Below are positions 1 through 10,150 of a stretch of 32,785 nt of DNA, piece by piece (the first letter of the stretch is position 1; every line of letters begins with the position of its first letter). This DNA comes from a candidate division WOR-3 bacterium. GTDB taxonomy: Bacteria; Hydrothermota; Tepidihabitantia; Tepidihabitantales; CAIPLT01. Location: positions 1 to 32,785 of the forward strand of contig JAOABV010000013.1 in NCBI GenBank assembly GCA_026418155.1. Reading direction: 5' to 3'. The notes below the pieces were generated by a model. That model did no database searches, was not told where the DNA came from, and saw nothing but the letters and a program-made list of their open reading frames with translations. Made by a program: the position numbers and the translations under genes.

Positions 1-560
1 ATAGGTCTATGTTCAATTAAAAGACCTTATCATTCTGTCTGTAAGTAGACGCGCATCGCAAATTAAAGGCTAAAGATTTCAAATAGCCGAATATTCGCTC
101 ATAAGTCACTTCGCATTAAATCAGGATGACAAAAAAGACTTGTCATTATGAACCTTCATGCCTTTCATCCTGATTATTTCCACTTCGCATTCTAATTTTT
201 ATCATTATGAGATTTTTCCCTTTTGTTATTCTGGCTCTTTTCTTCTGTCATACTGAATTCATCTCCCTTTTAGCATTCTGAGTCTTTTATCTTTCTCTGT
301 CATTCTGGTGAGCGAAGCGACGACAAATCCCATTTGCCCAAAAAGCATCCGCATTTTAAGATTCTGAATCAAATGTATAATGACAATATGCCTTCCTTTC
401 TGTCATTCTGAGCGAAGCGAAGAATCCCAAATGCCGAGGAATATTAAATTTTACATACTCCACACAGAATGCCGAAAGACCGGCAGTTGAGATGTTTCGC
501 TACCGCTCAACATGACAAACAAAGTGGCCTCTCGCATTCCCAGTGTCAAGCAATAGAGAA
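1..560. repeat. Gene-free region of degenerate TGTCATTCTGAG-type intergenic repeats
   Basis: No credible reading frame lies here. Two good copies of a repeat that begins TGTCATTCTG and continues AGCGAAGCGA sit at 298-331 and 401-428. A copy in the opposite orientation (GCTCAACATGACA at its end) lies at about 489-517. Weaker fragments (CATTCTG, CATACTG, CATCCTG, TCATTATG) recur at about 30, 121-151, 225, 246 and 273. The pair at 121-131 and 141-151 (TCAGGATGACA / TGTCATTATGA) can nearly fold on itself. I recall similar sequences as intergenic repeats in many unrelated bacterial genomes, but their function is not known to me. Confidence 0.6.
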
Positions 561-660: not shown

Positions 661-689
661 TTGACAAATCACAAAAAATTTGGTATAAG
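661..689 (+). promoter_or_regulatory. Sigma-70-type promoter for the Lon-like gene
   Basis: TTGACA at 661-666 is followed after exactly 17 bases by TATAAG at 684-689. Transcription would begin near 696, giving a leader of about 160 nt that contains the palindrome at 723-835. Confidence 0.7.
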
Positions 690-722
690 ATTAAAATATA
701 AGTGTTATGCAAAAAACAAAAA

Positions 723-835
723 ACCGGCGGCTACGCATAATTGAAAGCATTCTATTTTAAAGAATTAATTGGGGCACTCCGGCTCCGCTTTCTAATTGAG
801 AAGGATTCTTTAAAATATGCTTGATAGCCGCCGGT
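723..835 (+). promoter_or_regulatory. 113-bp imperfect palindrome in the leader of the Lon-like gene
   Basis: The outer arms ACCGGCGGCTA (723-733) and TAGCCGCCGGT (825-835) are perfectly complementary over 11 bp. Inner arms TATTTTAAAGAAT and ATTCTTTAAAATA (from about 753 and 804) are complementary over 13 bp, and short AAGCA/TGCTT pairing can extend between them. The structure lies between the promoter at 661-689 and the start codon at 858, so the transcript would carry a long stem-loop. Either a cis-acting RNA structure or a small non-coding inverted-repeat element (MITE-like) would fit. No poly-T run follows, so it is not a classical terminator. Confidence 0.6.
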
Positions 836-857
836 ATTAAATTAGCAATAACTGATT

Positions 858-3275
858 ATGAAAAACAATCAATTTGAAGTTCCAATTGAAAAACTACGAT
901 TAGTTTGCGACCCGAACAAATTTCCTTTTGAAACAACTGATGAAGTTGGAATATGTAATGATATTATTGGTCAAGACCGAGCAGTTAAAGCCTTAAAGTT
1001 GGGAATAGAAATTCCCAGTGCCGGCTATCATATTTTTGTTACAGGTTTAGTGGGCACTGGTCGCACAACCGCTGTAAAGTATCTTTTAGATACTGCGGAA
1101 AAAAGTAAAAAAATTCCTGATGATATTCTCTATGTGAATAATTTTGCTGACCCTGATAATCCTAAATTAATCCGACTACCAGCAGGTATGGGTGATAAAT
1201 TCGCTTACGCGATGGAAGAATTAATTGAGAACCTTAAGAAAAATATTCCGATGGTCTTAGAAAGCGATACCTATCAACTGCGCCGAAATAAATTGATTGA
1301 ACATTTTAAGGCAAAATCATCTACCTTGGCATTAGAATTTGAAAAGAAACTGCAAGCCGAAAATTTTGGTATCGTGCAATTACTACCGATCGCTCAGCCC
1401 GAGTTGGTTTATATTTATGAAAACCAGCAATTAAATTTTGAAGGCGTTGCTAATTTGTATGCGGAACAAAAAATTACTCGCGAACAGTTTCAAGAAATTC
1501 AAAAGAAGTTCGATAAATTTTCCCAAGAATTAAATGAAATTTTCCAAAAAATCAAAGCAATTGAAAAAGAGACCCGCGCCAGTTTATCAAAATTAGAACA
1601 AGATACAATAAAACCCGTCGTTTTAGAACAAATCGAAGAAATTAAAAGTGAGTTCAATTTCGAACCGGTTCATCATTATTTAGATGAGGTCACAAAAGCA
1701 ATCTTATCCAATATTGAAAGATTTATTCCTCAAGAGAAAAAATCCCATAGTCCAGTTATTGACCAATTTTTAGAATTTAAGGTTAATGTCTTAGTTGATA
1801 ATTCACATCTTGAAGGCGCACCGGTTATTTTTGAGACAACTCCAACTTACAAAAACATTTTTGGCACAATTGAGCGGGTCTGGGACCGTTCTGGCCAATG
1901 GCGAACTGATTTTACAAAAATTAAAGCCGGTTCACTTCTCAAAGCCGATGGCGGATTTTTGATATTAAATGCCTTAGATGCAATTTTAGAGCCCGGAGTC
2001 TGGCCAACTTTGAAAAGAACTTTACGCAATCGGATATTAGAGATAACATCCTTTGACCCCTATACGATGTTTGCTATTTCCGGATTAAAACCTGAACCCA
2101 TACCAATTGATGTTAAAGTGATAATGATTGGCGATGCTCGCATCTATAATATCTTATATAATTACGACGAAGACTTCAAAAAAATCTTTAAGGTTCGGGC
2201 GGATTTTGATTGGGTAATGCCATTATCCGATGAAACCATTAGACAATACGCCCAAGTGATAAAAGGAATTTGTCATAAAGAAAATTTACTTGCTTTTGAT
2301 AAGACCGCAGTCGCTGCTATTGTAGAATACGGGGTCCGTTTAGCCGGGAGAAAAAATTATCTCTCAACCCAGTTTAATCTTATCACGGATGTGCTCAAAG
2401 AGGCTAATTATTGGGCACAAAAAGAAAAGGCAAAAGTAATATCAAAAAGACATATTGAAAAAGCAATTGAAGAAAGAATCGAGCGTGTAAAATTAATCGA
2501 AGATAAAATTCAAAAGATGATTGAAGAAGGCACCATCTTTATTGATACTGAAGGTAAAGTTGTCGGACAAGTCAACGGTTTATCAATTTATGATGTTGGC
2601 GAATATTCCTTTGGTCGTCCTTCGCGCATCACGGCCAAAATTGGTGTTGGTGCCTCGGGTGTAATCAATATTGAGCGCGAAGCCGAACTCTCTGGTCCAA
2701 TTCATAGTAAGGGCGTCTTAATTCTTTCTGGTTATCTTCGTGATAAATATGCTCAAGATAAACCATTAGCCTTAAGTGCCAGTTTATGCTTTGAGCAATC
2801 TTATTCAGGTGTTGAAGGCGATAGCGCTTCTTCAGCCGAACTTTATGCGTTGCTCTCCAGCCTTTCTGGCATTCCAATTCGCCAGGATTTAGCGGTTACC
2901 GGTTCAGTCAATCAAAAAGGTGAAGTGCAACCCATCGGCGGCGTCAATCAAAAAATTGAAGGGTTTTTTGCGGTATGTAAAGCCAAAGGACTTACTGGCA
3001 CTCAAGGTGTAATTATTCCCCAAGCCAATATTGACGATTTGATGTTGCGCAATGAAGTATTAGAAGCAGTCCGCCAAGGAAAATTTCATATTTATGCAAT
3101 AAAGACCATTGATGAAGGAATTGAACTCTTAACCGGTGTCAAAGCCGGCACAAAAGATGAAAATGGCAATTATCCTCAAGGAACCATCAACTATTTAGTT
3201 AACGAAAGATTAAAACAATTAGCCCAATACTGGCAGGAGTATCAAGGTCTTTCAACCGGAAAAAGTAACCTCTAA
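858..3275 (+). CDS. ATP-dependent Lon-family protease with AAA_32-type ATPase domain
   Basis: This 805-aa protein is a Lon-family serine protease of the type with a divergent ATPase domain (AAA_32), predicted to degrade cytoplasmic proteins using ATP. A P-loop-like GLVGTGRT lies at residues 63-70, with arginine in place of the usual lysine; as far as I recall, this is common in the subfamily. A charged, probably coiled-coil stretch fills about 120-270. The C-terminal Lon peptidase domain has the serine in GDSAS (S656) and the lysine in GGVNQK (K699). Their 43-residue spacing equals that of the E. coli Lon pair. No transmembrane segment is evident, unlike archaeal LonB. There is no clear Shine-Dalgarno before the ATG, and the leader holds a large palindrome, so expression may be controlled after transcription. 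The gene converges with the RseC-like gene, three bases apart. Confidence 0.9.
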   Translation: MKNNQFEVPIEKLRLVCDPNKFPFETTDEVGICNDIIGQDRAVKALKLGIEIPSAGYHIFVTGLVGTGRTTAVKYLLDTAEKSKKIPDDILYVNNFADPDNPKLIRLPAGMGDKFAYAMEELIENLKKNIPMVLESDTYQLRRNKLIEHFKAKSSTLALEFEKKLQAENFGIVQLLPIAQPELVYIYENQQLNFEGVANLYAEQKITREQFQEIQKKFDKFSQELNEIFQKIKAIEKETRASLSKLEQDTIKPVVLEQIEEIKSEFNFEPVHHYLDEVTKAILSNIERFIPQEKKSHSPVIDQFLEFKVNVLVDNSHLEGAPVIFETTPTYKNIFGTIERVWDRSGQWRTDFTKIKAGSLLKADGGFLILNALDAILEPGVWPTLKRTLRNRILEITSFDPYTMFAISGLKPEPIPIDVKVIMIGDARIYNILYNYDEDFKKIFKVRADFDWVMPLSDETIRQYAQVIKGICHKENLLAFDKTAVAAIVEYGVRLAGRKNYLSTQFNLITDVLKEANYWAQKEKAKVISKRHIEKAIEERIERVKLIEDKIQKMIEEGTIFIDTEGKVVGQVNGLSIYDVGEYSFGRPSRITAKIGVGASGVINIEREAELSGPIHSKGVLILSGYLRDKYAQDKPLALSASLCFEQSYSGVEGDSASSAELYALLSSLSGIPIRQDLAVTGSVNQKGEVQPIGGVNQKIEGFFAVCKAKGLTGTQGVIIPQANIDDLMLRNEVLEAVRQGKFHIYAIKTIDEGIELLTGVKAGTKDENGNYPQGTINYLVNERLKQLAQYWQEYQGLSTGKSNL

Positions 3276-10102: not shown

Positions 10103-10112
10103 CCATGATAAA

Positions 10113-10150
10113 ATGGTTGTTATAATATAATATGGTTGTTATAATATAAT
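10113..10150 (+). repeat. Exact 19-bp tandem repeat between the GWxTD genes
   Basis: ATGGTTGTTATAATATAAT occurs twice head to tail (10113-10131 and 10132-10150), followed by a partial third copy TATAATATAA. Each unit contains TATAAT, so it could duplicate a -10 box for the second gene, but it may also be simple slippage. Confidence 0.8.

What the first reader, a model, noticed from the sequence alone, without database searches (positions are those of the whole stretch)
661..857. Lon-like protease gene has a 160-nt leader with a 113-bp palindrome and no Shine-Dalgarno
Seen: a promoter with a 17-base spacer at 661-689, perfect 11-bp outer and 13-bp inner arms at 723-835, and a start codon at 858 without a ribosome site. 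Inference: the transcript begins inside a large stem-loop that could control translation or stability of a protease, for example with temperature. The alternative is a non-coding inverted-repeat element that landed in the leader.
Basis: partly seen in the sequence, partly recalled or inferred. Interest (0 to 1): 0.5.

Follow-up and report, generated by a model that had tools for sequence, protein, structure and literature searches.

The report
Conserved folded RNA leading protease mRNA
The palindrome in front of this Lon-like protease gene is one species' version of a folded RNA leader that related bacteria have kept in the same place by matched mutations, so it most likely controls how much of the protease is made.

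Summary
The palindrome is real: P1 723-733/825-835, P2 753-765/805-817, two inner hairpins. It is the most stable 122-nt stretch of the window and single copy in its 95%-complete genome. A covariance model built only from two same-family genomes finds the window copy at E=1.7e-8 and one strong copy in each of the 5 held genomes of the family. In four, it lies between a TTGACA promoter and the LonC-type protease gene; in the fifth the contig ends there. Copies share as little as 50% sequence but keep the fold: 12 of 30 pairs change on both sides (shuffled mean 4.6), though a structure-blind alignment supports this less. G-U exceeds A-C 18 to 5. No Rfam family matches, and none of 142 other genomes of the phylum has it. 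Best reading: an undescribed, family-restricted cis-regulatory leader RNA, not a mobile element. Temperature control is weakly disfavoured; the missing Shine-Dalgarno is ordinary here. How it acts is inferred: sensing, mRNA stability, or attenuation with a short upstream ORF and terminator-like hairpins.

The parts
661..689 (+). Sigma-70-type promoter TTGACA-17-TATAAG driving the leader
   Evidence: Sequence; TTGACA with 16-17 nt spacer and TATAAT/TATACT precedes the element in the four relatives. Transcript start near 696 is inferred.
708..761 (+). Possible upstream ORF, 17 codons (MQKTKNRRLRIIESILF), running into the element and ending in the 5' arm of P2
   Evidence: Sequence; the first ATG after the -10 box opens an ORF into the element in 5 of 5 leaders, 4 of 5 in the same frame relative to P1; ORF lengths weakly longer than shuffles, combined p 0.007 (0.011 without G004), this copy alone p 0.33. 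Translation not shown.
723..835 (+). Structured leader RNA element (whole fold)
   Evidence: Fold z -5.70; hit at 724-842 by model R1, built without it, E=1.7e-8; covariation (weaker).
723..733 (+). P1 5' arm, core GGCGG identical in 5 of 5
825..835 (+). P1 3' arm
   Evidence: against the relatives one U-A pair is C-G and one G-C pair is A-U here
745..749 (+). Lower P2 5' strand (pairs with 818-822)
   Evidence: Fold; less regular in relatives
753..765 (+). P2 5' arm
   Evidence: Perfect 13-nt inverted repeat; upper P2: 2 of 6 pairs with double-sided change
770..787 (+). P3 hairpin (770-775/782-787, loop ACUCCG); relatives GAGGU...ACCUC
   Evidence: 2 of 5 pairs with double-sided change, all cells paired. 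The generic scan flags it, with tail CTTTCTAATT, as terminator-like (1 found, 0.1 expected).
788..804 (+). P4 hairpin (788-793/799-804)
   Evidence: 4 of 5 pairs with double-sided change, 84% of cells paired; not recovered on the structure-blind alignment
805..817 (+). P2 3' arm
858..3275 (+). LonC/LonB-type AAA+ Lon-like protease, 805 aa
   Evidence: Pfam AAA_32, LonB_AAA-LID, LonC_helical, Lon_C above cut-off; best NCBIfam hit LonB is below its cut-off

Best explanation
The palindrome is the window's copy of a roughly 110-130-nt structured leader RNA belonging to the Lon-like protease (LonC-type) gene in one bacterial family. It is transcribed from the promoter at 661-689. It folds into a domain closed by P1, with P2 inside carrying two hairpins (P3, P4) and, in the four relatives, a small extra hairpin (P1.1) on the 5' side. 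It acts in cis on the protease mRNA. Shown by computation: the fold, its conservation by compensatory change, its strand preference, one strong copy per held genome, and linkage to the promoter and LonC with two different kinds of upstream neighbour. Inferred: that it controls how much LonC is made. The mode I judge most likely (about 0.4) is a sensing leader: a protein (LonC itself or a partner) or a small ligand stabilises or opens P1 and P3 and so changes access to, or lifetime of, the mRNA. A passive mRNA-stability or translation-setting domain (about 0.25) and attenuation coupled to the short upstream ORF (about 0.2) come next. The remainder is other modes.
For: R1, built from G003 and G001 only, finds the window element at E=1.7e-8 and one strong hit in each of 5 of 5 family genomes. 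Three sequences folded separately give the same architecture (z -5.70, -4.21, -6.73; the G003 fold was of a longer stretch). On A5, 95.2% of cells pair; 12 of 30 pairs have double-sided changes against a shuffled mean of 4.6 (0 of 500), and slid registers give 0-3. RNAalifold on A5: 20 of 44 pairs with double-sided changes; on a structure-blind MAFFT alignment the P1/P1.1/P2/P3 core is recovered. G-U 18 cells, A-C 5. The divergent upstream neighbours of G002/G003 and of G001/G004 are different genes. One copy per genome. No match in the 142 non-family genomes of the phylum at E<=0.01, nor in 31 other LonC loci except a 34-nt hit at E=4.1.
Against: Only five sequences, two of them 92% identical. 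A5 was fitted to R1's structure. The number of further pair types on A5 does not exceed shuffles (17 against 16.1; 180 of 500 reach it). On the structure-blind alignment A6 the covariation term is slightly unfavourable (+0.72) and P4 is not recovered. Few unpaired positions are strictly conserved, less than expected of a ligand pocket. In the window copy P1.1 is degenerate and the Shine-Dalgarno is absent, so this lineage may be losing part of the function. In G004 the contig ends just after the element, so LonC there is inferred. No expression data.
Confidence: 0.72

Rival explanations
1. Leader-peptide attenuation: a short ORF starting just after the promoter is translated through the 5' arms of P1 and P2. 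The ribosome's progress decides whether the element folds, and perhaps whether a small terminator-like hairpin inside it stops transcription, and so sets LonC output.
For: The first ATG after the -10 box opens an ORF into the element in 5 of 5 leaders; 4 of 5 share the frame reading RRL at P1. ORF lengths are weakly longer than shuffles, combined p 0.007, or 0.011 without G004. A terminator-like hairpin with a T-rich tail, on the leader strand, lies inside the element in 4 of 5 leaders, against 0.1-0.2 expected per region: P3 in the window and G002, P1.1 in G001 and G004.
Against: G002 is in another frame and has no ATG, GTG, TTG or CTG in the RRL frame. Stop positions differ: 5' arm of P2, just before P3, 3' arm of P2. 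The window copy alone has p 0.33. G003's only terminator-like site is on the other strand. The stems are weak (5-6 pairs), are not the same helix in all, and shuffles remove any conserved hairpin, so the excess is partly built in.
Confidence: 0.2
2. RNA thermometer hiding the LonC ribosome site.
For: Protease genes are plausible heat-stress genes. The predicted unpaired fraction of the ribosome site rises from 10 to 75 C in G001 (0.40 to 0.67), G002 (0.34 to 0.83) and G003 (0.21 to 0.84).
Against: The site lies downstream of P1, outside the conserved fold. At 37 C the fraction is 0.41, 0.52, 0.24 and, in G004, 0.97 with no change on heating (transcript truncated by the contig end). The rise is gradual, as for any RNA. 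The window copy has no Shine-Dalgarno.
Confidence: 0.08
3. Mobile inverted-repeat (MITE-like) insertion that landed in the leader.
For: Palindromic arms. A sister-family genome (G005) does carry a multi-copy palindrome in front of its LonC (18 matches).
Against: Only short matches elsewhere in the window genome; one strong copy in each of 5 family genomes, always after this promoter; compensatory changes.
Confidence: 0.02
4. DNA-level element (operator pair or cruciform) or a minus-strand small RNA rather than a plus-strand leader RNA.
For: On the minus strand P1 is followed by a T-rich run. P1's GGCGG core is identical in five, as a protein-binding site might be.
Against: G-U cells outnumber A-C cells 18 to 5 when read as plus-strand RNA (cells of related sequences are not independent). 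The plus strand folds better (-46.1 against -37.8). Inner helices covary, which an operator pair does not need.
Confidence: 0.06

Closest known systems
Structured cis-regulatory mRNA leaders of bacteria (riboswitches, ribosomal-protein and other protein-binding leaders; recalled)
   Same: Promoter, then a folded domain of 110-130 nt with covarying helices, then the gene's start; multi-branched fold closed by a basal stem
   Different: No Rfam 15 family matches; found in one family only; few conserved unpaired bases; no recognised ligand
RNA thermometers (ROSE, fourU; recalled, no model of their own tested apart from Rfam)
   Same: Sit in leaders of stress-type genes
   Different: The ribosome site is not part of the conserved fold
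Leader-peptide attenuators (recalled)
   Same: Small ORF overlapping a folded leader; terminator-like hairpins in 4 of 5
   Different: Frame and stop position not conserved; no terminator helix common to all five
Palindromic dispersed repeats / MITEs, such as the one upstream of LonC in G005
   Same: Long inverted repeat in front of LonC
   Different: The G005 repeat has 18 matches in its genome; this one is single copy and conserved by position

Membership tests
Structured cis-regulatory leader RNA (general kind) | Helices supported by compensatory changes | tested here: met
   12 of 30 pairs with double-sided change, 0 of 500 shuffles reach it; weaker on a structure-blind alignment, 10 of 36 pairs with a term of +0.72
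Structured cis-regulatory leader RNA (general kind) | Fixed position between a promoter and the same gene | tested here: met
   4 of 5 genomes show LonC directly after it; the fifth contig ends there
Structured cis-regulatory leader RNA (general kind) | Changes expression of the downstream gene | not testable with these tools
   Needs reporter or RNA-seq data
Any Rfam 15 family | Score at or above the gathering threshold | tested here: not met
   0 matches in the window and in the four relatives' loci; lax searches of two leaders gave only low-scoring unrelated names
RNA thermometer | Ribosome site held paired by the fold at low and opened at high temperature | tested here: inconclusive
   Site outside the conserved fold in 4 of 4; gradual opening predicted in three, none in G004; no site in the window copy
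Riboswitch | Binds a ligand; conserved unpaired pocket | tested here: inconclusive
   Few invariant unpaired columns in five sequences; binding not testable
Leader-peptide attenuator | Conserved translated upstream ORF and a competing terminator | tested here: inconclusive
   4 of 5 ORFs in one frame, combined p 0.007-0.011, G002 an exception; terminator-like hairpin in 4 of 5 but not the same helix
Mobile inverted-repeat element | Multiple copies at unrelated loci | tested here: not met
   Elsewhere in its genome only 9 matches of 14-20 nt; one strong copy in each of 5 family genomes
LonC/LonB-type Lon-like protease (downstream gene) | LonB-like AAA, LonC helical and Lon_C protease domains | tested here: met
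   Pfam hits above cut-off; NCBIfam LonB cut-off not reached

The most novel reading that the evidence does not exclude
A new class of sensing leader RNA dedicated to a Lon-like protease: a multi-branched RNA that reads LonC level, unfolded-protein load or the state of translation (through a short upstream ORF and terminator-like hairpins) and sets protease output. This would be dedicated RNA-level control of a LonC-type protease, which did not appear among the papers my searches listed.
Probability: 0.35. Interest if true: 0.7.

Novelty: new member of a known kind. Interest (0 to 1): 0.5.

Why it matters
If right, this is an undescribed structured RNA class attached to one protein-quality-control gene in a little-known lineage (the genome is held here only as 122 contigs). 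Leader control of a LonC-type protease did not appear among the papers listed by my searches. It gives an immediately testable reporter construct, and it shows that a long palindrome in a leader can be told from a mobile repeat by a model built only from relatives.

Tried and rejected
Mobile element: rejected. Eight loci with short matches to the arms or to the pattern CCGGCGGCTA (L002, L008, L024, L040-L043, L057) were read with 180 nt on each side; none shows the element, and each match lies in an open stretch of 246-510 codons. The other short matches were not read. Rfam look-ups, strict and lax, gave nothing. Extra weak model hits: G002 C29 (E 0.30, inside an open frame), G002 C77 (E 0.0015, a terminator-like hairpin after a gene) and G009 (E 0.008, inside a frame that looks like a short-chain dehydrogenase on the other strand) were read and judged chance. 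Hits in G007 and G008 (E 0.1-0.6) were not read. Pairing of the P3 loop (ACUCC) with the LonC ribosome site looked compensatory between G001 and G004. It fails in G003 and the window copy, and at least 13 stretches of the element do as well in every leader: rejected. Thermometer: weakly disfavoured. The first alignments of G003 and G001 were unusable because of a wrong coordinate (A2) and a bad end (A3); A4 was used instead. Naming the lineage failed: a search centred on L073 was not accepted. A Stahlbacteria/WOR-3 placement is only a guess from a 52% LonC match. It raised the attenuation rival from 0.15 to 0.2 and lowered the passive domain from 0.3 to 0.25. A closer look raised the thermometer from 0.05 to 0.08.

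Full report
OBSERVATION. The window is contig C13 of a 1.74-Mb genome in 122 contigs, 95.41% complete. RNA 719-840 folds to -46.1 kcal/mol, z -5.70, with 0 of 200 shuffles as good. Among 4356 122-nt windows scanned in steps of 15 across the whole window on both strands, only the one on the element reaches that energy (raw energy). The gene has the LonB-like AAA, LonB LID, LonC helical and Lon_C protease domains and stays below NCBIfam's LonB cut-off. The missing Shine-Dalgarno is not special: of 26 ORFs checked (of the 31), 7 have a clear one, 2 a weak one and 17 none, this gene among the 17 (starts not verified).

COPIES IN THE SAME GENOME. BLAST of the element against its own genome gives 13 rows at E<=10: itself, three rows of its own opposite arms, and nine matches of 14-20 nt (best E 0.03). 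The two I read (L002, L008) show no similar element and lie in long open frames. Bare-sequence hits at E<=0.1 occurred in 17 of 61 genomes, the window genome among them; the five of those loci that I read (L040-L043, L057) were chance matches in long open frames. So the sequence itself is neither repeated nor conserved enough for BLAST.

RELATIVES. LonC was found at E<=1e-50 in 57 of 61 genomes. Reading the upstream regions of 32 LonC loci (one, L011, is cut off) showed that two same-family genomes, G003 (LonC 70% identical) and G001 (59%), carry different sequences with the same layout: P1 (CCGGCGGCUA / AGGCGGUUGC / GGCGGUUGAGG with their partners), P2, hairpin P3 (GGGGC..GCUCC / GAGGU..ACCUC / GAGGU..ACCUC) and hairpin P4. 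Folded one by one they give the same architecture, except that the window copy lacks a clear P1.1 hairpin.

INDEPENDENT TEST. Model R1 was built from G003 and G001 only (A4). Over 36 sources it found the window element at 724-842, E=1.7e-8 (and, being a palindrome, its reverse strand at E=0.0017). The 31 other LonC loci (26 from non-family genomes, 5 from named records whose family is not known) gave only one 34-nt match at E=4.1. Across all five held genomes of the family it gave one strong match each: G003 1.5e-30, G001 9.5e-29, G004 7.3e-26, G002 2.0e-17, G000 1.3e-7, plus one weak extra in G002 (E 0.30). In G002 the element is followed by a clear Shine-Dalgarno and the LonC N-terminus at the contig end. 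In G004 the contig ends right after an AAGGAG, so LonC there is inferred from the same promoter and upstream genes as in its congener G001.

COVARIATION. On A5 (five sequences aligned to R1), 95.2% of 147 cells pair, 12 of 30 pairs carry double-sided changes (shuffled mean 4.6; 0 of 500 reach it), and shifted registers give 0 to 3. One of the five measures, the number of further pair types, does not exceed shuffles (17 against 16.1, 180 of 500). RNAalifold on A5 gives 44 pairs, 20 with double-sided changes. Against this: A5 is fitted to the structure, and G001 and G004 are 92% identical. With a structure-blind alignment (A6) RNAalifold returns the P1/P1.1/P2/P3 core with 10 of 36 pairs changed on both sides, but a slightly unfavourable covariation term (+0.72), 7 of 36 pairs broken or gapped in two sequences, and no P4. 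On A5 the window copy shares only 50-53% of element positions with each of the other four, yet 10-12 pairs differ from each by compensatory change; 3-8 pairs are broken in one or the other. Reading strand: 18 G-U cells against 5 A-C cells, among 175 Watson-Crick and 15 other cells. The plus strand folds better than the minus.

CONTEXT AND RANGE. Upstream, G002 and G003 share a divergent gene that looks like a histidine ammonia-lyase; G001 and G004 share divergent genes resembling a tyrosine recombinase and a D-Ala-D-Ala ligase (names recalled from the sequences, no family search; homology within each pair). In the window no open stretch of 60 codons lies in the 723 bases before the element, where the contig begins. 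The element therefore travels with promoter and LonC over two kinds of neighbour. Model R2 (five sequences) over 28 genomes of the order gave, beyond the family copies and two of their reverse strands, five weak hits. The two read (G002 C77, G009) are chance; three in G007 and G008 were not read. Over 147 genomes of the phylum, 5 have a match at E<=0.01, all in the family (strict filters and a capped number of scored candidates, so weak copies could be missed). LonC genes of another family in the order (G007, G010, G012) appear leaderless by eye. G005, in a sister family, has a different long palindrome in front of LonC, but that one is a dispersed repeat with 18 matches in its genome: the contrast expected of a mobile element.

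HOW IT WORKS. Shown by computation: a conserved plus-strand fold between promoter and protease. Inferred: control of LonC output. A thermometer is weakly disfavoured: in the four leaders with a ribosome-site-like run it lies outside the conserved fold. Its predicted unpaired fraction at 37 C is 0.24 to 0.97; it rises gradually with temperature in three and is flat in G004 (truncated). A pairing of the P3 loop with the ribosome site was tested and rejected. An upstream ORF starts after the promoter in 5 of 5 and shares one frame in 4 of 5, with combined length p 0.007, or 0.011 without G004: suggestive, not established. Terminator-like hairpins on the leader strand lie inside the element in 4 of 5 (P3 in the window and G002, P1.1 in G001 and G004; 0.1-0.2 expected per region), while G003 has one only on the other strand; they are weak and not the same helix. 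P1's GGCGG and P2's AGA/UCU pairs never vary in the five although pairing alone would let them, which I take as a hint of recognition by something. Hence a sensing leader (protein or ligand) is my first choice at about 0.4, a passive stability or translation domain about 0.25, attenuation with the upstream ORF about 0.2.

KNOWN OR NEW. No Rfam 15 family reaches its gathering score in the window or the four relatives' loci; lax searches of two leaders gave only unrelated low-scoring names. Paper searches were seen as listings only: structured RNA motifs and WOR-3 (15 of 191 listed), Lon protease with riboswitch, leader RNA or thermometer (15 of 455), LonC and Lon-like proteases (10 of 26), WOR-3/Stahlbacteria with noncoding RNA (5 of 5), LonB with COG1067 (none), Lon with mRNA leader or upstream ORF (8 of 21). 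None of the listed titles is about such a leader. In PMC12542636 (WOR-3 genomes) a term search of the main text found no mention of Lon, protease, RNA motif, riboswitch or noncoding. Of PMC3391209 I read the outline and abstract, which describe an ATP-independent Lon-like protease. The phylum of the window is not established; a Stahlbacteria MAG has a 52% LonC match. I rate this a new member of the known kind 'structured cis-regulatory leader RNA', in no named family.

Noticed in passing
window 1-560: Non-coding stretch with degenerate copies of a TGTCATTCTGAGCGAAGCGAAGAATCCC-type dispersed repeat; a query with 290-440 finds 3 further places in the genome.
   Followed up: partly
L012:1195-1440 (G005): A sister-family genome has an unrelated long palindrome at its LonC leader that is a multi-copy repeat, 18 matches in the genome.
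   Followed up: partly
L015, L016, L017 upstream of LonC (G010, G012, G007): LonC genes whose promoter-like sequence ends only a few bases before the ATG, suggesting leaderless transcripts (by eye).
   Followed up: no
window, 26 of the 31 ORFs: Only 7 of 26 ORFs have a clear purine-rich ribosome site, 2 more a weak one, 17 none (starts not verified).
   Followed up: no
window 10108-10150: Short tandem repeat, 19-nt unit, 2.3 copies, between two ORFs.
   Followed up: no
L097:1501-1640 (G002): In G002 both P3 (tail ATTTTTTTAT) and the 3' arm of P1 (seven T) are followed by T runs, so this copy could terminate transcription; the other four copies lack a T run after P1.
   Followed up: partly
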